DNA of 64,000 bases, taken from the NCBI GenBank assembly GCA_039801505.1, contig JBDRUV010000002.1, positions 186,001 through 250,000 on the forward strand. The letters are read 5' to 3'. The notes under the pieces are model-generated. The model saw only the letters and a program-made list of their open reading frames with translations, was not told where the DNA came from and did not search any database. A program made the position numbers and the translations under genes. Positions within the stretch are counted from its first letter, which is position 1. Every line of letters starts with the position of its first letter. This document shows positions 1,809 to 35,668 of the stretch, piece after piece. The DNA is from a candidate division WOR-3 bacterium (lineage in GTDB: Bacteria; Hydrothermota; Tepidihabitantia; Tepidihabitantales; CAIPLT01).

Positions 1809-2231
1809 ATGCCATTTAAAAATCTTAATCATATTGGGATTGCTGTTAATTCTCTTGATGAGGCAGTTAAAATTTATTGCAATGTGTTTAAGCTGGGGGT
1901 ACCTAAAATTTTAGAGCTTAACGAAATGCAATTGAAAATTGCACTTTTTTATCTGGGCGAGGTAAAAATTGAACTAATTGCTCCTTTAAGTTCTGGTACA
2001 ACAATTGCGAAATTTTTAGAAAAACGCGGACCGGGTATTCATCATTTATGTTTTAATGTGGAAAATATTGAACGAACCTTAGAAGAATTAAAATCCCAGG
2101 GTATAACTTTAATTGACGAGAAACCCCGAATAGGTGCTCTAGGCAATAAAATTGCCTTTATTTCTCCTAAAAGCACCAGCGGGGTTTTAATTGAATTAGC
2201 CGAAGAAATTAACTATCAAGAAAAGGAGTAG
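1809..2231 (+). CDS. mce: Methylmalonyl-CoA epimerase
   Basis: This 140-residue vicinal-oxygen-chelate (glyoxalase-fold) protein begins LNHIGIAVNSLDEAV and contains GPGIHHLCFNVENI and a C-terminal GVLIELAE, all typical of methylmalonyl-CoA epimerase. The enzyme interconverts the (S) and (R) epimers so that the neighbouring mutase can use them. The frame is open further upstream (to 1734), but GGGGAGG at 1797-1803 sits correctly before the ATG at 1809, and the shorter protein matches the family length. Metal ligands visible are the His of the LNHIG motif, the paired His of IHHLCF and the Glu of IELAE. Confidence 0.93.
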   Translation: MPFKNLNHIGIAVNSLDEAVKIYCNVFKLGVPKILELNEMQLKIALFYLGEVKIELIAPLSSGTTIAKFLEKRGPGIHHLCFNVENIERTLEELKSQGITLIDEKPRIGALGNKIAFISPKSTSGVLIELAEEINYQEKE

Positions 2232-2234
2232 ACA

Positions 2235-3434
2235 ATGCAGAAAAAACACAAGATGCGTCGCAATATAGCTACGGAAGTCATTCATGGCAAACAAGTATTG
2301 GGTGATATTCACACCCGAGCCCTTTCGGTACCAATTTATCAAAGCGCGGTTTTTACTTTCGAGAGTGCCGAAGCTGGAGCCGAGATTTTTGCTAAAAAGC
2401 GTCCGGGATATTTTTACACGCGACTCGGTAATCCGACCATTGAGATGTTTGAAGAAAAAATGGCATATTTAGAAGAGGGTGAAGCTGCCTGTGCTTTTGC
2501 TTCTGGCATGGCAGCAATTTCCGGCGTTGTTTTAGGGGTTTGTGGAGCTGGTGATGAAGTAATTGCAGTGTATCCAATTTATGGATGCACTTATTCGCTT
2601 TTAACTGATTTGGTCAACCGTTGGGATATTAAAGTCAAGTGGGCTCGGACCGATAATTTTTTAACTAATTTACGGCGCCAAATTACTAAAAGGACCAAGC
2701 TTGTGCTAATTGAAACTCCAGTGAATCCTACCATCGATATTGTGGATATTAAGGCCACTGCAGACATTGCCCACCTGGCGGGGGCGGTTTTAGCGGTTGA
2801 TAATACTTTCGCGTCATTTTATAATCAAAAACCCCTAGTCTGGGGAGCAGACATTGTAATTTACAGCGCCACAAAGTATATTAGTGGTCACGGCGACACC
2901 GTTGGTGGCGTGGTAATTAGCAAAAAAGATTTTATTAGTTATCTTAAGGATTATATTATTCGAGATCTAGGTGGAATTATCAGCCCGTTTAATGCTTGGT
3001 TACTACTTCGTGGTCTGCGAACTATGGCGGTGCGTATGGAGCGTCATAACGAAAATGGTTTAGCTGTTGCCGAATTTTTACAAGAACATCCTAAGATTCA
3101 ATGGGTTAAATATCCCGGTTTAAGTACGCATCCTCAATACGAAATTGCGCGGCGCCAGATGACCGGTTTTAGTTCCATGATTGCATTCGAATTAAAAGGC
3201 GGCCGTGATGCGGGAAGAAAGCTGATGAACAACCTGAAGTTATGTATTTGTGCTGTGAGTTTGGGAGATGTCGCCACCCTAATTGAGCATCCGGCTTCCA
3301 TGACCCATTCTAGTTATTCTAAAGAAGCCTTAAAGGCTTCGGGAATTTCTGAAGGACTCGTTCGAATGTCTGTTGGCCTCGAGGCCAAAGAGGATATTAT
3401 TGCGGACCTCGAACAGGCCTTGGCTAAAATCTAG
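2235..3434 (+). CDS. Methionine gamma-lyase-like PLP enzyme (Cys/Met metabolism family)
   Basis: This 399-residue trans-sulphuration-family enzyme has the YTRLGNPT phosphate/substrate motif, the Schiff-base Lys in YSATKYISGHGD, and SMTHSSYS near the C-terminus. The stretch PIYGCTYSLL places a Cys where methionine gamma-lyase has its diagnostic Cys116 (Pseudomonas putida numbering). That favours cleavage of methionine to methanethiol, ammonia and 2-oxobutyrate over cystathionine synthesis or lysis. AAGGAG lies just upstream, and the gene starts 3 nt after the epimerase stop. In this operon, 2-oxobutyrate would yield propionyl-CoA, the source of methylmalonyl-CoA. O-acetylhomoserine sulfhydrylase remains possible. 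Confidence 0.8.
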   Translation: MQKKHKMRRNIATEVIHGKQVLGDIHTRALSVPIYQSAVFTFESAEAGAEIFAKKRPGYFYTRLGNPTIEMFEEKMAYLEEGEAACAFASGMAAISGVVLGVCGAGDEVIAVYPIYGCTYSLLTDLVNRWDIKVKWARTDNFLTNLRRQITKRTKLVLIETPVNPTIDIVDIKATADIAHLAGAVLAVDNTFASFYNQKPLVWGADIVIYSATKYISGHGDTVGGVVISKKDFISYLKDYIIRDLGGIISPFNAWLLLRGLRTMAVRMERHNENGLAVAEFLQEHPKIQWVKYPGLSTHPQYEIARRQMTGFSSMIAFELKGGRDAGRKLMNNLKLCICAVSLGDVATLIEHPASMTHSSYSKEALKASGISEGLVRMSVGLEAKEDIIADLEQALAKI

Positions 3435-3439
3435 TTAAG

Positions 3440-5146
3440 TTAGGCAGTTTTAATTTTAGCTAATTCTTCAAGACCCAGTTCTTTAATTAACATTTCGCGT
3501 AGTTTAAACTTCTGGATTTTTCCGGTTACGGTCATTGCCATCGAGAAGTTATCGACAAATTTCACATATCGAGGGATTTTGGGCCATTCCATCTTACCCT
3601 CGCACCGGGCTTTAATTTCTTCTAGGGTTAAGGTTTTATTCGGTTTAAGTTTAATCACGGCAGCCACGACTTCTTGAAGCACTTTATGAGGCACACCAAC
3701 ACAATGCACATCCATAATCTCATCGGCAAAAATAGTCCGAAGAGCCTCTTCAACTTCGACCGGATAGACATTATGGCCACCGACAATTACCATGTCTTTG
3801 TAGCGCCCTACGATCTTATAATAACCCTCAGCATCTCTGGTTCCTAAGTCACCGGTTCTAAGCCAACCGTCTTTGGTAATTACCTTACTGGTTTCTTCAG
3901 GTTTTTTATAATAGCCTTTCATGACATTATAACCCCGGACCCAGATTTCGCCTACCTCACCGACTCCAAGTTCCCTTTCAGTTATCGGATCAACGATTTT
4001 GGCCTCAACATGGTCTATGGGTCGGCCTACTGTGCTTACTCGGCGTTCAATGCTGTCATCAGGGCGAGTTTGATGGGTTATGGGGCTGGCTTCGGTCAGA
4101 CCATAGACAATGGTAATCTTTTTAGCTCCCATTTTATTAACCACATCTTTCATAAGTTCAATTGGGCAGGGTGCACCAGCCATAATTCCGGTTCGAAGGC
4201 TAGAGAGATTAAATTTTGCAAAATCCGGGTCATTAAGTTCATTAATAAACATTGAAGGCACACCATGCAATGCGGTGCAGCGTTCTTTCTCAACTGCAAT
4301 TAAGGTCTTTCGGGCATTAAAATGTTCTGCCGGGACGACCATTGTAGCACCGGTTGTGATACACAAGAGATTGCCTAAAACTGTGCCAAAACAGTGATAA
4401 TAAGGTACCGGTATACATACCCGATCCTGCGGAGTCAGCTCTAAATTCTCAGCCCCAGCTCGAGCATTATTAACCACATTATAATGGGTCAGCATGGCAC
4501 CCTTAGGAAAACCGGTGGTGCCAGAGGTATACTGAATCAGACAAACATCATCCGGGCTAACCACAGAGCAAGCCGTCTTAAATACCTCATCGGGGACATT
4601 TTGAGCTAGCCCTAGAAACTCTGACCAACTAAGTGCCCACCTTGGGACATTTGGAGTTTTATTAATCAGGATAATCTTTTTGAGCTCGGGAAAACGATGG
4701 AGTTTTAGATTTAGTCCTGTAGCCTGTTCTAATTCGGGACAAGCCTCCCTTAAAATCTCGATGTAATTATACCGATGCAGTTTCTCGCCACTCTTTTTCT
4801 CAAATCCTTCAATCATTACGAGCATCTTGGTATCTGATTGTTTTAGGGCATACTCAACCTCTGAAGACTTCCACTCCGGATTTACGGTGACCAAGGCAGC
4901 ACCAATCCGAGCGGTAGCTAATTGCGTTAAGAGCCATTCTAATTTATTCGTGCCCCAGATCGCTACATGGTCCTGACGCTTAATGCCGCAAGCCAATAGT
5001 GCTTTTGCGGTCCTGTCTGTTAGTTCTAAGAGTTCTTGCCAGTTGTAGCGGAGATTATCATCAACATAAACAATTGCTTCATGATTAGGATATTTTTTAG
5101 CATTCTCTTGTAAAATATCACCGATGGTTTTTCTAATTAACTCCAT
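3440..5146 (-). CDS. AMP-forming acyl-CoA synthetase (FadD-like)
   Basis: This ANL-superfamily ligase activates a carboxylic acid as acyl-adenylate and then acyl-CoA. Visible motifs are the P-loop YTSGTTGFPKGAML (about residue 190), VYGLTEASP, the hinge GWLRTGDLG, GGHNVYPVEVE and the catalytic Lys in the C-terminal TGKIQKFKLRE. With about 568 residues it matches medium/long-chain synthetases; the substrate cannot be read from sequence. Two ATGs are close together. The first (5152) directly abuts the AGAAAGGA ribosome site, so the second (5146), about 6 nt away, is preferred. The gene converges on the methionine gamma-lyase gene with only 5 nt between stops and no obvious terminator. Confidence 0.9.
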   Translation of the reverse strand: MELIRKTIGDILQENAKKYPNHEAIVYVDDNLRYNWQELLELTDRTAKALLACGIKRQDHVAIWGTNKLEWLLTQLATARIGAALVTVNPEWKSSEVEYALKQSDTKMLVMIEGFEKKSGEKLHRYNYIEILREACPELEQATGLNLKLHRFPELKKIILINKTPNVPRWALSWSEFLGLAQNVPDEVFKTACSVVSPDDVCLIQYTSGTTGFPKGAMLTHYNVVNNARAGAENLELTPQDRVCIPVPYYHCFGTVLGNLLCITTGATMVVPAEHFNARKTLIAVEKERCTALHGVPSMFINELNDPDFAKFNLSSLRTGIMAGAPCPIELMKDVVNKMGAKKITIVYGLTEASPITHQTRPDDSIERRVSTVGRPIDHVEAKIVDPITERELGVGEVGEIWVRGYNVMKGYYKKPEETSKVITKDGWLRTGDLGTRDAEGYYKIVGRYKDMVIVGGHNVYPVEVEEALRTIFADEIMDVHCVGVPHKVLQEVVAAVIKLKPNKTLTLEEIKARCEGKMEWPKIPRYVKFVDNFSMAMTVTGKIQKFKLREMLIKELGLEELAKIKTA

Positions 5147-29531: not shown

Positions 29532-29560
29532 TTGACAGGGTTTATATTAGCGGGTATAAT
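29532..29560 (+). promoter_or_regulatory. Promoter of the hrb-hcp-fprA operon
   Basis: TTGACA (29532-29537), 17-nt spacer, TATAAT (29555-29560): both boxes perfect. A 26-nt gap to the ATG contains AGAAGGGAG, a ribosome site. Confidence 0.8.
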
Positions 29561-29586: not shown

Positions 29587-30279
29587 ATGGACTTAACGAC
29601 GTTACAAAAAATTAATTATGGAATGTATATTATAAGTGCTCAAAAAAATGGCCAGTTTAATGGCCAGGTGGCTAATGCCTTAATCCAAGTAACTTCAGAA
29701 CCACCACAAATTGCCGTGGGTATCAATAAACAGAACTTAACCCATGAATTTATCACCGAAAGCCGCGTTTTTACAATTTCAATTCTTAGTGAAGAGACCC
29801 CGATGAACTTTATCGGTCGATTTGGATTTAAGTCCGGCCGTGAGTTTAATAAATTTGAGGGCATAAATTTTAAAATTGGGATAACTGGAACCCCAATTGT
29901 GTTGGACTATACTGTGGGATATATCGAATGTGAGGTGACTAAGACCGTAGATTGCGGTACCCATACTTTATTTATCGGGCGGGTCCTTGATGCCCAAAGT
30001 GTTGCTGATAAACCGCCCATGACTTATGCTTATTATCATATAATTAAAAAAGGCAAGTCCCCCAAGACAGCACCAACTTATCTAAAACAAGAAATCAAAC
30101 AAGAAAGCGAGGTGAAAACAATGACTAAGTATCGCTGCACAGTATGTGATTATATTTATGACCCGGCCGTTGGCGATCCAGAGTCTCAAGTTCCGCCCGG
30201 CACGCCATTTGAGGCATTACCCGAAAACTGGGTATGTCCGGTTTGTGGTGCCGATAAATCTCAATTTGAGCCGGTGTAA
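29587..30279 (+). CDS. hrb: High-molecular-weight rubredoxin (flavin reductase-rubredoxin fusion)
   Basis: In this 230-residue protein, residues 1-155 form an FMN-binding split-barrel flavin-reductase domain ([38 protein letters not shown]). The C-terminal ~52 residues are a complete rubredoxin with iron ligands in [12 protein letters not shown] and [10 protein letters not shown]. This matches Hrb of Moorella, which passes electrons from NAD(P)H to the flavodiiron protein FprA. FprA is encoded two genes downstream. An internal ATG (30121), preceded by GCGAGG, could allow separate translation of the rubredoxin domain. The perfect promoter suggests strong expression. Confidence 0.88.
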
Positions 30280-30313: not shown

Positions 30314-31621
30314 ATGAACGAAACTTTAAAGATGTTTTGTTATCAATGTTCCCAAACAGCCAAAGGCACTGGCTGCACAGTGCGAGGAGTTTGCGGCAAA
30401 GAGCCAACTGTGGCTCGGCTTCAAGACAATCTGTTGTTTGCGATTAAGGGGATCTCAGCCTATCTTTATCATGCTCGAGAGCTTGGCGTCTCAGACAGGG
30501 AAATCGATTCGTTCCTAGAAATGGGATTTTTTAGCACGCTGACCAATGTTAATTTTGATCCTACCCGTTTTATAGAACTTGCCCTAAAAGCCGGTAAGAT
30601 GAACATTAAAACCATGAAGTTACTTAAAGATGCCCACATTAAGGAATACGGCGAACCTACCCCGACAAAAGTACGAACTACAACAGTCAAAGGTAAAGGC
30701 ATCATTGTCACCGGACATAGTCTTAAAGCATTGCATGAACTTCTTAAGCAAACCGAAGGCACCGGCATCAATATTTATACCCATTCTGAGATGCTACCAG
30801 CTCATGGTTATCCGGAATTAAGAAAATATCAGCATCTTGTCGGCAATTTAGGCGGAGCCTGGCATGATCAACGAGAACTTTTTGCGCACTTTCCTGGTGC
30901 TATTCTTGCTACCTCTAACTGTGTACTTTTGCCCACGGACGCCTACAAAGATCGAATCTTTACTATGGGTGTTACCGGCCTACCGGGTGTAAAACATATT
31001 GATGGTTTTGACTTTACACCGATAATTGAAAAAGCTAAAACTTTGCCCGATCTAGAAGATCGGCCCTCAGGACAATTTTTAACCACTGGATTTTCTAAAT
31101 CTGTGATATTGGCCCTTGCCGATAAAATAAAAAGATTACTTGTTGAGGGGCATCTTAAACATATCTTTTTAGTTGGTGGATGCGACACACCGGGCAAGAA
31201 AGGCGAATATTACCGTAAATTCGTAGAACTTTTACCGAAAGAGACTTTAGTCATTACTCTAGCCTGCGGTAAATACCGATTTAATAACTTAGATTTAGGC
31301 GAACTAGATGGTATCCCGCGTCTAATTGACTTAGGACAATGTAATGATACGGTCGTGGCTCTGGAGATTGCTGAAGCTTTTTGTGCCCTTTTAGGTGTAT
31401 CAATTGATAAATTACCTTTAAGTTTAGTTTTAACTTGGATGGAACAAAAAGCAGTAGCAATTCTTTGGAGTCTATTGGCATCGGGTTTTAAAAATATTTA
31501 TCTCGGGCCAATTATTCCGGCTTGGATTAATAAAGAAATTTTAGAAGTGCTGATAAATAATTATCAGATAAAATTAATCTCAAAACCAGAAAAAGACCTA
31601 CAAGAGCTCTTAGGAGGATAA
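30314..31621 (+). CDS. hcp: Hybrid cluster protein (class III Hcp; hydroxylamine/NO reductase)
   Basis: This 435-residue protein is about 110 residues shorter than class I/II Hcp, as in the class III proteins of thermophiles and methanogens; it is not truncated. The N-terminal [4Fe-4S] motif is CYQC-x8-C-x5-C. Hybrid-cluster ligands are visible in order: the His of TGHSL, the Glu of [12 protein letters not shown], then [27 protein letters not shown] and [10 protein letters not shown]. Hcp enzymes reduce NO or hydroxylamine and protect against nitrosative stress. It lies between hrb and fprA; AGGAGG precedes the ATG. Confidence 0.92.
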
Positions 31622-31623
31622 TA

Positions 31624-32805
31624 ATGTTTCGAGAAATCAAGCCAAGAATTTTTTATGTTGGTGCCTTAGACTTTGACCGCAGGCTTTTTGACGAACTAAT
31701 ACCTCTACCGTATGGCACAAGCTATAATGCGTATGTTATACAAGGCAGCGAAAAAACTGCTCTAATTGATACGGTCGATCCAACTAAAGAAAATGTTTTA
31801 ATTGAAAATCTAAAGCATCTCGGATTAAGCCGCATTGACTATGTTATTGCGCATCATGCTGAACAGGACCATTCCGGTGTAATTCCTGTAATCTTAAAGC
31901 ATTTTCCTGAAGCCAAGGTTGTTACTAATGCGAAGTGTAAAGAACTTTTAATCCGCTTGCTTTTAATACCCGAAGAACGGTTTTTGGTCATCCGGGATCA
32001 CGAGACGCTTTCTTTGGGTAATAAAACCTTAGAATTTATCTTTGCACCTTGGGTTCATTGGCCAGAAACAATACTGACATATCTAAAAGAAGATAAAATT
32101 CTTTTTACTTGTGATTTCTTGGGATCTCACTTGGCTACTAGTGATCTATTTGTGACCGATGAATGTCGCTACTACGATTCGGCAAAGAGATATTATGCTG
32201 AAATTATGATGCCCTTCCGGACTAATATTAGACAGCACCTAGAAAAGCTTAAAGACCTTCAAATAGAGATAATTGCTCCAAGCCATGGGCCACTTCATAA
32301 TCGACCGGACTTTATTATTAATGCTTATCGTGACTGGACCTCTGATAGAGTAAAAAACGAAGTAGTGATTCCTTATGTCTCGATGCATGGGGCAGTTGAT
32401 GCGATGGTGGAGTATTTTTGTGATCGCATTATCTCTTTGGGGATTTCAGTAAAACCTTTTAATTTAACAACTACAGATCTAGGTGAATTAGCCATGGCTT
32501 TAGTTGATGCCGCAACCTTGATAATTGGGACTTCAGCCGTGTTGGCTGGCCCGCATCCTCAGACAATTTTCGCGGCCTATTTAGTAAATGTCTTGCGTCC
32601 TAAAACTAAATTTTTATCGATAATTGCCTCATACGGTTGGGGCGCCAAAATCGTAGAAAAACTTACCGAGTTAACTAGTAATCTTAAGGTTGAGGTACTA
32701 GATAGCGTTATTGCCCATGGTTATCCTAAAAAAGAAGACTTTATGAAATTAGATGCTTTGGCTGAAAAAATCCAAATAAAACATAAAGAACTTGGTATTC
32801 TGTAA
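31624..32805 (+). CDS. fprA: Flavodiiron protein (FprA-type O2/NO reductase)
   Basis: In this 393-residue protein the N-terminal metallo-beta-lactamase domain carries the diiron ligands in HHAEQDHSG, the His of PWVHWPET, the Asp of FTCDFLG and the His of APSHGPLH. The C-terminal flavodoxin domain (about 250-393) begins VIPYVSMHGAVDAM. It reduces O2 to water and/or NO to N2O with electrons from rubredoxin, here presumably Hrb. AGGAGG is provided by the end of hcp. Together with Hcp this is an anaerobe's defence operon. Confidence 0.92.
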   Translation: MFREIKPRIFYVGALDFDRRLFDELIPLPYGTSYNAYVIQGSEKTALIDTVDPTKENVLIENLKHLGLSRIDYVIAHHAEQDHSGVIPVILKHFPEAKVVTNAKCKELLIRLLLIPEERFLVIRDHETLSLGNKTLEFIFAPWVHWPETILTYLKEDKILFTCDFLGSHLATSDLFVTDECRYYDSAKRYYAEIMMPFRTNIRQHLEKLKDLQIEIIAPSHGPLHNRPDFIINAYRDWTSDRVKNEVVIPYVSMHGAVDAMVEYFCDRIISLGISVKPFNLTTTDLGELAMALVDAATLIIGTSAVLAGPHPQTIFAAYLVNVLRPKTKFLSIIASYGWGAKIVEKLTELTSNLKVEVLDSVIAHGYPKKEDFMKLDALAEKIQIKHKELGIL

Positions 32806-32806
32806 A

Positions 32807-34018
32807 ATGCCTCTGGTATATTTAGATAATCATTCAGCAACTAAACTTGATATGCGAGTGCTTGAAGCGATGCTACCGTACTTTACCGAATTTTATGGCA
32901 ACCCGCTGAGCTTTCATCCTTTAGGGCAAAAATCGGAGCAGGCGAGAGAGACAGCACGCCAAGAAGTTGCCAACTTGTTATCAGTCCAACCAGATGAAGT
33001 TTACTTTACTTCTTGCGGCTCGGAAGCTAATAATTGGGCAATTAAGGGTATAGCTTGGGCTTATCAACATAAGGGACGGCATATCGTTACTTCTAAAATT
33101 GAACATGTCTCAGTGCTTAATACCGTGAAATATCTCGAACAACAGGGTTTTGAAGTTACTTATCTGGATGTTGATCAGTATGGCTTAGTAGATCCGGATG
33201 ATTTAGAGAAGGCTTTGAAAGATACTACGATCTTAATATCAATTCAACATGCTAATCCTGAAATTGGGACTATTCAGCCAATACCGGAATTAGTAAAAGT
33301 TGCTAAAAGCCACGGAATTTTATTCCACACCGACGCTGTGGCTAGTTGTGGTATCATCCCGGTCGATGCTAACAAGTTAGGAGTTGATCTTTTAAGCTTA
33401 TCGGCATCCACCATGTATGGCCCCAAAGGTATTGGTGCCTTATTCGTAAAAAAAGGAATAAAGATTACACCCCTAATTCATGGCGGTATCCAAGAACATA
33501 ATAAGCGAGCTGGCACCGAAAATATTCCGGGAATTGTTGGTTTCGGTAAAGCCTGTGCTTTAGCCAAAGCCGAGATGTCTATGCGACATAATACACTTTG
33601 TCGGCTACGCAACAAACTTATTGCGGAAATTCCTCAAATAATTGAATATGTTTATCTAAACGGACACCCAGCAAACAGATTGCCCAATAATATAAATTTT
33701 TCCTTTGAATTTGTTGAGGGGGAAAGTATTACTTTGCTTTTAGCCGAAAAAGGCATCTATGTAAGCAGTGGTTCTACTTGTAGTTCAAGAGCCTTAAAGA
33801 TGTCTCATGTACTTGAGGCATTAAGGATTGATCCAGCTGTTGCTCAAGGTACGATTACTATGACCTTAGGGATCGATCTGACAGATAGTGATATTGCTTA
33901 TGTATTAGAAAAATTGCCGCCGATCATTTATCATCTTCGAGAGCTTTCACCGCTTTATGATCATTTTAAGAAAACTGGGCAAAGAAAAATTGCCGGCCCG
34001 CGATTACGTCACGAATAA
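32807..34018 (+). CDS. IscS/NifS-like protein lacking the PLP lysine
   Basis: This 403-residue class-V aminotransferase-fold protein is otherwise close to cysteine desulfurase: YLDNHSATK, TSCGSEANNWAI, IEHVSVLNT, FHTDAVA, RAGTENIPGIVGFG and the catalytic Cys325 in SSGSTCSSRALKMSHVL. But the Schiff-base motif, normally SGHKIYGPKG, reads SASTMYGPKG, so the PLP Lys is Thr202. The PLP-contacting Gln after TDA(V/T) is Ala. It should therefore not make sulphur from cysteine by the standard route. An IscS of Archaeoglobus fulgidus with the same type of loss is known to cooperate in Fe-S assembly (from memory). It lies 1 nt after fprA; no iscU is adjacent. Confidence 0.85.
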   Translation: MPLVYLDNHSATKLDMRVLEAMLPYFTEFYGNPLSFHPLGQKSEQARETARQEVANLLSVQPDEVYFTSCGSEANNWAIKGIAWAYQHKGRHIVTSKIEHVSVLNTVKYLEQQGFEVTYLDVDQYGLVDPDDLEKALKDTTILISIQHANPEIGTIQPIPELVKVAKSHGILFHTDAVASCGIIPVDANKLGVDLLSLSASTMYGPKGIGALFVKKGIKITPLIHGGIQEHNKRAGTENIPGIVGFGKACALAKAEMSMRHNTLCRLRNKLIAEIPQIIEYVYLNGHPANRLPNNINFSFEFVEGESITLLLAEKGIYVSSGSTCSSRALKMSHVLEALRIDPAVAQGTITMTLGIDLTDSDIAYVLEKLPPIIYHLRELSPLYDHFKKTGQRKIAGPRLRHE

Positions 34019-34031
34019 ATAAAAAAAATAT

Positions 34032-34059
34032 CTTGACAACGGCTAGTTGATTATTATAA
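34032..34059 (+). promoter_or_regulatory. Promoter of the 34127 outer-membrane gene
   Basis: TTGACA (34032-34037), 16-nt spacer, TATAAT (34054-34059). The 67 nt to the ATG include a hairpin and an AAAGGAG ribosome site. Confidence 0.8.
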
Positions 34060-34066
34060 TTAGCCT

Positions 34067-34126: not shown

Positions 34127-35668
34127 ATGCCTAAAAAACGAATAATTAACGCGCTAGTGGCAATTTTGCTTTTTATTGCTACCGCACCTCTTAAAGCGCA
34201 GACACCATTTCAGTTTAAGCTGTCAACGACAGCCCCGGAAGCTGGACTTTTCTTTGCTAATCCTGGATATATTACTCCAGCTCTATCTTGGGGACCTTAT
34301 GGAATTTTCTGTAATCCCGCAGCCTTAGGATTTCAACTGGATTATGGTTTGGCATTTGCTTTTGGTATTCCAAGTAAGCCGCAAATTAATGCCGACTTAA
34401 CACTATTTCAACAGACTAATTATATGAGCCAAATTACGGTACCATTGGAGTTAACTATTGAGGATAAGGGTGGTTTGAATTTTATAGGACTTATGGGACG
34501 AGCCGGTCCAGTTGGTATTGGTTTGGGGTTGATGCAAAAGTCAGCCTCAGGTTTGAGTTTTGACTTCCAGCAAACCCAGACAATTAATATCAATTATCAA
34601 ATTACTCAGACAATTCGGGCACGCATAAATCCAACTCTTGATACTGCAGTGCCGATTACAATTGACATTAATGCCCCAGTTCAACTAAGTCTTGACGGCG
34701 ACGGAGCATTAGAAGTTGGTCGCATGCCATTATTTATTGGCGCAGGCTATGCTTTAGGAAATGCTTTTGGCGTAGGATTAGGGACAAAAATTTATCAATA
34801 TACCGGCAACTTAAGATCGGGTATTGATTTTGACTTTCGAACTAATGTATCCTGCGTTGGAAGAGCTCAACCCCCCTTTCGAGGTGCAATTACCGGTAAT
34901 GCTTTTGTAGCCGATACTATATTCCATGTTTTGGGCAACGGTGATTTTAATGCCTCTCAATTGGCAATAACCTTGGGGACGTTACTTAGAGCCGGGTTCT
35001 TTAGGATGGGTCTTACATTAGAACAGGGGTTACCCACCGAACTTTCTGGTAATTACTCTCTTACTACTTTTCGTCTAACTGACATGCCTGATAGCATGCG
35101 GGTCGATAGTAACTATGTTAGTTTTGTACTGCCAGATAGTATTTATGGGCGCTTGGCGATTTCGGTTCTGCCTGGTATAAGAGATTATGATACAATTGGT
35201 GGGACCCAAACGCTTTCCCTTAAGGGATATACTGATTTAAACCTGGGCTTGTCCTTTTCAATACTTGATTTATATCTGGGTGGCCGAGTTCCTAATCCTC
35301 ATGATATTAATAGTGCTAAATTTGGATTGTTGTTGTCGGTGCCAGTTTCACCAGTTACAGTTCGGACCGGTCTTTTGGCTAGTATGGATTATTTATATCA
35401 AGTAAATAATAACACACCACTTTTGCCCCTACGCGTCCTCGTATACGGTGGGCTAGGTGCATCTTATAAACAAACTCTTAGTTTCCTTGAAGGGCGGCTC
35501 AATTTCCTTCCCAGGTTGCCTGAAGTGCAGATTGATTTGGCGGTTAAAACCAATGCATTACCTTGGGGTGCGCGATTTATTCCTAACAATTCGTTAGTTT
35601 CCAATATTCAATCTCCGGGCTTTATGTCCCTTTTGAACTTTAATCTTGGTCTGGGGATAAACATTTAG
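34127..35668 (+). CDS. Predicted outer-membrane protein, unknown function
   Basis: This 513-residue protein has a clear signal peptide (NALVAILLFIATAPLKAQ). The barrel-like body is rich in Gly, Tyr and alternating hydrophobic residues (GPYGIFCNPAALGFQLDYGLAFAF, VGIGLGLMQKSASGL), and it ends in a strand-like FNLGLGINI. The motif FCNPAALGF recalls the NPA motif of PorV-like barrels, so it may be a distant, larger relative. A perfect promoter, hairpin leader and strong Shine-Dalgarno suggest an abundant protein. It is monocistronic, followed by a strong hairpin at 35683-35712. Confidence 0.6.
   Translation: MPKKRIINALVAILLFIATAPLKAQTPFQFKLSTTAPEAGLFFANPGYITPALSWGPYGIFCNPAALGFQLDYGLAFAFGIPSKPQINADLTLFQQTNYMSQITVPLELTIEDKGGLNFIGLMGRAGPVGIGLGLMQKSASGLSFDFQQTQTININYQITQTIRARINPTLDTAVPITIDINAPVQLSLDGDGALEVGRMPLFIGAGYALGNAFGVGLGTKIYQYTGNLRSGIDFDFRTNVSCVGRAQPPFRGAITGNAFVADTIFHVLGNGDFNASQLAITLGTLLRAGFFRMGLTLEQGLPTELSGNYSLTTFRLTDMPDSMRVDSNYVSFVLPDSIYGRLAISVLPGIRDYDTIGGTQTLSLKGYTDLNLGLSFSILDLYLGGRVPNPHDINSAKFGLLLSVPVSPVTVRTGLLASMDYLYQVNNNTPLLPLRVLVYGGLGASYKQTLSFLEGRLNFLPRLPEVQIDLAVKTNALPWGARFIPNNSLVSNIQSPGFMSLLNFNLGLGINI

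What the first reader, a model, noticed from the sequence alone, without database searches (positions are those of the whole stretch)
32807..34018. IscS homologue without the PLP lysine but with the catalytic cysteine
The Schiff-base motif reads SASTMYGPKG, so Lys is Thr202, and the PLP-contacting Gln is Ala, while Cys325 and the rest of the fold are intact. Ordinary cysteine desulfuration is then impossible. A similar natural loss in Archaeoglobus fulgidus IscS suggests a scaffold role using external sulphide (from memory of structural work). Here it ends an O2/NO-defence operon rich in Fe-S/diiron enzymes, which suggests cluster repair.
Basis: partly seen in the sequence, partly recalled or inferred. 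Interest (0 to 1): 0.7.

Follow-up and report, generated by a model that had tools for sequence, protein, structure and literature searches.

The report
Lysine-less IscS in Fe-S assembly
This gene encodes a relative of the enzyme that strips sulphur from cysteine, but it has lost the lysine and arginine needed for that chemistry while keeping its sulphur-carrying cysteine; related genes across many anaerobic microbes sit beside the iron-sulphur scaffold gene iscU, so it probably helps build or repair iron-sulphur clusters from another sulphur source.

Summary
Window 32807-34018 encodes an IscS-fold protein with Thr202 where the PLP lysine should be; Cys325 is kept. It is not a sequencing error: codon ACC is two changes from Lys, no Lys-less relative found has Lys there, and the gene is under purifying selection.

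The substrate-carboxylate Arg (E. coli R354) and residues equivalent to H205, Q183, N155 and D79 are lost too. In 59 surveyed genomes of its class, every Lys copy has that Arg (59/59) and no readable Lys-less copy does (0/44). 42 of the 59 carry both types. Lys-less genes recur beside iscU, tusA, dsrE2, rubrerythrin-like, fprA and hcp genes.

In the window it ends a promoter-bounded operon (flavin reductase-rubredoxin, HCP, FprA, IscS*). The genome's only iscU lies elsewhere, in what looks like the other half of a split ancestral iscS*-iscU operon; the genome also has a normal Lys-IscS and no detected SUF, A-type carrier, HscB, TusA or DsrE2.

Closest known: A. fulgidus IscS (D199), which reportedly has no desulfurase activity and ligates IscU's cluster with its Cys. 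Best reading: an IscU partner using sulphide or sulfane sulphur, posted in a stress operon.

The parts
32807..34018 (+). IscS* : Lys-less IscS/NifS homologue, 403 aa (ATG start 1 base after the fprA stop codon)
33410..33412 (+). codon ACC, Thr202 in place of the PLP Schiff-base Lys (E. coli K206, A. fulgidus D199)
33779..33781 (+). Cys325, the mobile-loop sulphur-carrying cysteine, invariant in both groups (coordinates computed from residue number)
33857..33859 (+). Thr351 in place of the substrate-carboxylate Arg (E. coli R354) (coordinates computed from residue number)
   Evidence: role of R354 from PMC9978102
29532..29560 (+). perfect sigma-70-like promoter TTGACA-17-TATAAT upstream of the operon; AGGGAG ribosome-binding-like site before the first gene
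   Evidence: consensus match only
29587..30279 (+). flavin reductase-rubredoxin fusion, likely electron donor to FprA
30314..31621 (+). hybrid cluster protein (HCP, short form, 435 aa); hybrid-cluster ligand motifs kept
31624..32805 (+). FprA-type flavodiiron protein; diiron ligands kept
34033..34060 (+). second perfect promoter-like site, just after IscS*, before the unrelated ORF at 34127: marks the likely end of the operon

Best explanation
IscS* is a descendant of cysteine desulfurase that no longer desulfurates cysteine and works as the structural partner of the scaffold IscU in a minimal Fe-S assembly system. Shown by sequence: the Schiff-base Lys, the substrate Arg and several PLP contacts are gone together, while the fold, the mobile-loop Cys325 and the His/Asp of the pocket are kept; relatives are gene neighbours of IscU; the genome has a single IscU and a separate Lys-IscS. 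Inferred: IscS* docks IscU as in A. fulgidus (IscS-IscU)2, and Cys325 acts as a transient ligand or sulphur acceptor for the nascent [2Fe-2S] cluster. Sulphur comes from sulphide, or in relatives perhaps from DsrE2/TusA, while the Lys-bearing paralogue serves other sulphur needs. In this lineage the gene has moved into an operon with HCP and flavodiiron protein, which would make IscS* when O2 or NO destroys Fe-S clusters.
For: Joint loss of K206, R354, H205, Q183, N155 and D79 equivalents with C328, H104 and D180 kept; K and R354 go together in 59/59 Lys copies and 0/44 readable Lys-less copies. IscU adjacent to 34 of 45 Lys-less copies in the class and to 12 of 16 in genomes of other lineages. 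In the window's family and family f9, IscS* is away from IscU, but IscU sits with ferritin-like FerrA/FerrB (and, in the window's family, ThiBP), the genes found beside iscS*-iscU in related families: a split operon. IscU keeps its three Cys and the Asp. No SufB/D, A-type carrier or HscB found. Model pLDDT 92; A. fulgidus IscS (4eb5) at TM 0.92/0.98 and the highest identity of the listed hits, 48-49%. A. fulgidus IscS is reported to lack desulfurase activity and to give a Cys ligand to IscU's cluster (PMC7585200, PMC9769115). Sulphide feeds IscU in an E. coli iscS mutant (PMC13015791). Promoter-bounded operon.
Against: In the window itself IscU is not linked to IscS*. No biochemistry was found for this bacterial clade. 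The A. fulgidus clade may have lost Lys independently (AU p=0.465 leaves both readings open). The genomes are related, so the counts are not independent events. PLP may still bind, since His104/Asp180/Thr243 equivalents are kept, and a non-desulfurase PLP reaction is not excluded.
Confidence: 0.6

Rival explanations
1. Persulfide relay: IscS* is a sulfurtransferase whose Cys325 receives sulfane sulphur from TusA/DsrE2, or from the Lys-IscS, and passes it to IscU; it has turned from PLP enzyme into a rhodanese-like carrier.
For: tusA within 2.5 kb of 19 of 45 Lys-less copies in the class, and dsrE2-tusA downstream in several phyla; TusA is known to dock on IscS (PMC2854127 abstract). Cys325 is invariant; the Cys loop gains Lys/Arg at 328 and Lys at 331.
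Against: The window genome has no detectable TusA or DsrE2, so at least here the donor would have to be something else. E. coli TusA takes sulphur from IscS, the reverse direction.
Confidence: 0.2
2. Pseudoenzyme regulator: IscS* forms heterodimers with the Lys-bearing IscS, or competes with it for IscU, and tunes desulfuration under stress.
For: 42 of 59 surveyed genomes carry both paralogues, as do 14 of 16 genomes elsewhere. The residue that reaches across the dimer to PLP phosphate in IscS (Thr237 here; role from general knowledge) is kept.
Against: The two genes are almost never neighbours; the Lys-less copy is more often the one next to IscU (34/45 against 20/59). A few genomes show only the Lys-less copy, though some of these are incomplete.
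Confidence: 0.1
3. IscS* still binds PLP and catalyses a different, lysine-independent reaction, or slow desulfuration.
For: His104, Asp180 and Thr243 equivalents are kept; PLP is shown in the A. fulgidus 4EB5 structure (PMC9769115 legend); residual reactivity is speculated for E. coli K206A (PMC9978102).
Against: The substrate Arg, Gln183 and Asn155 positions are lost as well, and the Lys position varies (T/Q/V/M/P/S/D/A/N), which does not suggest a new catalytic residue there. K331 is conserved in the bacterial clade but is Gln in A. fulgidus; whether it could reach PLP was not testable here.
Confidence: 0.07
4. Artefact or decaying pseudogene: sequencing error or relaxed selection.
For: None found; the genome is a draft assembly in 57 contigs.
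Against: Two base changes would be needed to give Lys; orthologues in many genomes lack it; dN is low against saturated dS; identity to Lys-less relatives of other genera and phyla stays at 46-76%.
Confidence: 0.01

Closest known systems
Archaeoglobus fulgidus IscS (PDB 4EB5, 4EB7, 4HVK; D199)
   Same: Same fold (TM 0.92/0.98, 48-49% identity), Lys replaced, substrate Arg replaced by Leu, Cys kept; a close archaeal relative (L116) has the gene order tusA-iscS-iscU, as have iscS* operons of family f6 in the window's class.
   Different: Asp at the Lys site with Asn before it, and Asn155 kept; here Thr, Ser and Pro. The A. fulgidus type forms its own clade with f6 sequences (99% SH-aLRT). The window gene lies in an HCP-FprA operon, away from iscU.
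Methanosarcina acetivorans IscS1 (PMC7585200)
   Same: Reported to lack the catalytic Lys, in a genome that also has a Lys-bearing, active IscS2.
   Different: Encoded in an iscSU cluster; its sequence was not compared here.
Canonical IscS/NifS cysteine desulfurases (E. coli IscS, human NFS1, T. maritima NifS)
   Same: Fold, mobile-loop Cys, His104 and Asp180 equivalents, IscU-linked gene neighbourhoods in relatives.
   Different: Schiff-base Lys, substrate Arg, Gln183, Asn155, His205 and Asp79 all lost; below the NCBIfam NifS cut-off (500.8 against 530.75 bits).
MIS, minimal ISC system (MisS-MisU; as cited in PMC11559095, PMC12192291)
   Same: Two-part IscS-like plus IscU-like system without carrier; the window genome has IscU and no A-type carrier or HscB.
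   Different: MisS is described as a cysteine desulfurase; here the partner lacks that chemistry. The defining paper was not available, so the clade assignment was not tested.

Membership tests
Cysteine desulfurase IscS/NifS (class V aminotransferase fold) | Aminotran_5 fold and family profile | tested here: met
   PF00266 254 bits against cut-off 21.5; AF2 model TM 0.9 or more to solved IscS/NFS1
Cysteine desulfurase IscS/NifS (class V aminotransferase fold) | PLP Schiff-base lysine | tested here: not met
   Thr202; relatives T/Q/V/M/P/S/D/A/N there
Cysteine desulfurase IscS/NifS (class V aminotransferase fold) | Substrate-carboxylate arginine (R354) | tested here: not met
   Thr351; 0/44 readable Lys-less copies have Arg against 59/59 Lys copies
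Cysteine desulfurase IscS/NifS (class V aminotransferase fold) | Catalytic, persulfide-forming cysteine on a mobile loop | tested here: met
   Cys325, invariant; residues 325-329 have low pLDDT, consistent with mobility
Cysteine desulfurase IscS/NifS (class V aminotransferase fold) | Curated equivalog score (TIGR03402) | tested here: not met
   500.8 bits against 530.75
Cysteine desulfurase IscS/NifS (class V aminotransferase fold) | Cysteine desulfurase activity | not testable with these tools
   needs an assay
A. fulgidus-type Lys-less IscS | Lys replaced, Arg354 replaced, Cys kept | tested here: met
A. fulgidus-type Lys-less IscS | Common descent with A. fulgidus IscS apart from Lys-bearing IscS | tested here: inconclusive
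   two clades in the free tree; one clade not rejected, AU p=0.465
A. fulgidus-type Lys-less IscS | Gene linkage to iscU | tested here: not met
   not linked in the window genome; linked in 34/45 Lys-less copies of the class; split operon inferred
A. fulgidus-type Lys-less IscS | Complex with IscU, Cys as cluster ligand, no desulfurase activity | not testable with these tools
   needs purified proteins
MIS (minimal ISC system) | IscS-like plus IscU-like protein without carriers | tested here: met
   one IscU, no PF01521, no HscB, no SufB/D in a 96% complete genome
MIS (minimal ISC system) | Placement in the published MisS clade | not tested
   defining paper not held

The most novel reading that the evidence does not exclude
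A widespread bacterial Fe-S assembly system in which a former PLP enzyme serves as a non-enzymatic sulphur-relay and ligand subunit for IscU, fed by sulphide or by DsrE2 and TusA, running beside a normal Lys-IscS in the same cell and deployed with flavodiiron, HCP and rubrerythrin-like proteins for cluster repair after O2 or NO stress.
Probability: 0.25. Interest if true: 0.75.

Novelty: new variant of a known kind. Interest (0 to 1): 0.52.

Why it matters
Fe-S assembly on IscU is usually described as starting with a cysteine desulfurase. The archaeal exceptions, A. fulgidus IscS and M. acetivorans IscS1, could be taken for curiosities. Here the same catalytic loss, together with the substrate Arg, is found as the usual second IscS across much of one bacterial class and in other phyla, often as the copy next to IscU. 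If confirmed, many anaerobes would build clusters on IscU without this partner desulfurating cysteine. The proposal can be tested directly with two purified proteins and would bear on the sulphur source of early Fe-S assembly.

Tried and rejected
Sequencing error or pseudogene: rejected. Gln-to-Ala as diagnostic of the loss: rejected, because Lys-bearing IscS of the same lineage have it too. Another Lys in the motif as replacement: K207 of YGPKG occurs in both groups and is Pro or Arg in some Lys-less members, so it is unlikely; K331 is conserved in the bacterial clade but Gln in A. fulgidus, and no model coordinates were available to measure its distance to PLP. TusA/DsrE2 as sulphur donor in the window genome: not found there. 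Monophyly of all Lys-less proteins: neither shown nor rejected. A first translation of L001 on the wrong strand gave nothing (corrected). One tree row (L122b) was a spurious distant ORF and was dropped. The MIS and Pagnier papers are not held. Paper searches for a described bacterial clade of this kind found none, but subscription journals are mostly missing.

Full report
OBSERVATION. The ORF at 32807-34018 translates to a 403-residue protein of the class V aminotransferase fold (PF00266, 254 bits), nearest to the NifS/IscS models but below the NifS equivalog cut-off (500.8 against 530.75 bits). The Schiff-base motif reads SASTMYGPKG. Aligned with E. coli IscS and with the A. fulgidus IscS sequence of PDB 4EB5, Thr202 stands at E. 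coli Lys206 / A. fulgidus Asp199. The codon is ACC at 33410-33412; Lys would need two base changes. Gln183 is Ala179, but this is also so in the Lys-bearing IscS of the same genome, so it is not part of the signature by itself.

THE LOSS IS COHERENT. A first alignment set held 70 Lys-bearing and 33 Lys-less non-redundant homologues. Columns nearly fixed in the first group and lost in the second include E. coli K206, R354 (70/70 Arg against none), H205, Q183, N155 and D79 (to Asn). C328, H104, D180 and T243 are kept in both. PMC9978102 describes K206, H104, D180, Q183 and C328 as indispensable for activity and R354 as the residue that binds the cysteine carboxylate. The Lys position drifts (T, Q, V, M, P, S, D, A, N), as does the Arg position, while the cysteine is invariant: the pattern expected when catalysis is gone and the cysteine is still needed. 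The Cys loop gains Lys/Arg at 328 and, outside the A. fulgidus type, Lys at 331.

SELECTION. Against the same-genus copy (L017, 285 codons) pN is 0.15 and pS 0.73 (dN 0.16, dS saturated); the Lys-IscS pair gives 0.12 and 0.71. Both are under purifying selection.

DISTRIBUTION. In the window's class, hits from 59 genomes were read. 42 have both a Lys and a Lys-less copy, 3 only Lys-less, 13 only Lys, and one an Arg variant. Of Lys copies, 59/59 have Arg at the R354 position; of Lys-less copies, 0/44 readable ones (the Arg variant, which keeps R354, set aside). Outside the class, in 16 genomes whose records are labelled Elusimicrobia, Endomicrobia, Desantisbacteria, Deltaproteobacteria, Desulfarculaceae, Zixibacteria, Nitrospirota, Chloroflexi and Ferroglobus (an archaeon), 14 have a Lys paralogue as well; of the other two, one is a 0.4 Mb partial genome. 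These genomes are related and often incomplete, so the counts are descriptive.

NEIGHBOURHOOD. Within 2.5 kb on the same strand, Lys-less genes in the class have IscU in 34 of 45 cases, TusA in 19, rubrerythrin-like FerrA/FerrB in about 22, glutaredoxin/FTR-beta/thiamine-binding protein in 15, FprA in 6, HCP in 4 and DsrE2 in 3. Lys genes have IscU in 20 of 59 and none of the others (some flanks are shorter or cut by contig ends, and the Arg variant was taken out of the first count). DsrE2, TusA and the other families were confirmed by Pfam. FprA also stands next to or near iscS*-iscU in Elusimicrobia and Endomicrobia, and FprA plus HCP lie upstream in a Deltaproteobacteria MAG.

THE WINDOW OPERON. 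Flavin reductase-rubredoxin (29587), HCP (30314), FprA (31624) and IscS* (32807) are spaced by 34, 2 and 1 bases. A perfect TTGACA-17-TATAAT lies at 29532-29560 and another at 34033-34060 before the next ORF; consensus matches are not proof, but they bound the unit exactly. Hybrid-cluster and diiron ligand motifs are kept in HCP and FprA (motifs judged from general knowledge). The same order occurs in three other genomes of the family, G001, G002 and G004. Their public records L047 and L039 are labelled WOR-3 and L040 Latescibacterota, which places the window in or near the WOR-3 lineage.

THE MISSING IscU. The window genome (1.94 Mb, 96% complete) has one IscU, at C1:368356, next to FerrA, FerrB and a thiamine-binding-family gene. 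In the window's family and in f9 this IscU-with-ferritin-like arrangement recurs without IscS*, while in other families of the class FerrA/FerrB stand upstream of iscS*-iscU. The simplest reading is a split operon: iscU stayed, iscS* moved to the stress operon. IscU has all three cysteines and the aspartate. SufB/D, A-type carriers, HscB, TusA and DsrE2 were not found. A Lys-IscS is present.

TREE AND STRUCTURE. With pocket columns removed, Lys-less proteins fall into an A. fulgidus/f6 clade and a bacterial clade that holds the window. After thinning, two changes are needed and a single clade is not rejected (delta lnL 1.35, AU p=0.465). The AF2 model has mean pLDDT 92 with a low-confidence Cys loop; among the PDB hits listed, the A. 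fulgidus IscS entries have the highest identity (47-49%), TM 0.89-0.98.

MECHANISM. Shown: joint loss of catalytic residues, retention of Cys and fold, IscU linkage in relatives. Established elsewhere: A. fulgidus IscS lacks desulfurase activity and contributes a Cys ligand to the [2Fe-2S] cluster on IscU; M. acetivorans IscS1 also lacks the Lys (PMC7585200, PMC9769115); sulphide can feed IscU in E. coli without IscS (PMC13015791). Inferred: IscS* does the same here, with sulphide as likely donor, deployed with HCP and FprA under O2/NO stress. The TusA/DsrE2 relay is the main rival and may hold in relatives that have those genes.

VERDICT. Real, not an artefact, functionally coherent. Known in kind from two archaeal proteins; the extent, the paired paralogues, the Lys-Arg coupling and the stress-operon setting were not found in the papers searched, though the key MIS paper could not be read.

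Noticed in passing
L206 (G034), IscS ORF 2219-3661: An IscS with Lys replaced by Arg (TAHRIHGP) but substrate Arg kept, next to IscU, and the only IscS of this type read in that genome. Unexplained.
   Followed up: no
L119 1498-2040; also L212, L220: IscU of the window's family carries a C-terminal extension with CxxC pairs that look like zinc ribbons.
   Followed up: no
L134 6589-7107 (- strand) and relatives: Ferredoxin-thioredoxin reductase beta domain fused to a rubredoxin-like domain, downstream of iscS*-iscU-glutaredoxin.
   Followed up: partly
L157 2474-5020 (G003), L182 2498-4857 (G004): Tandem pairs of Lys-bearing IscS genes; one copy of each pair has an odd Cys loop (GSACETS, GYACAID).
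   Followed up: no
L001 1441-2604 (window genome C4): The Lys-bearing IscS itself has Ala at the PLP-contacting Gln position, as in several related families.
   Followed up: partly
window 34033-34060: A second perfect sigma-70-like promoter, before an ORF (34127-35668) with no Pfam or NCBIfam match.
   Followed up: no
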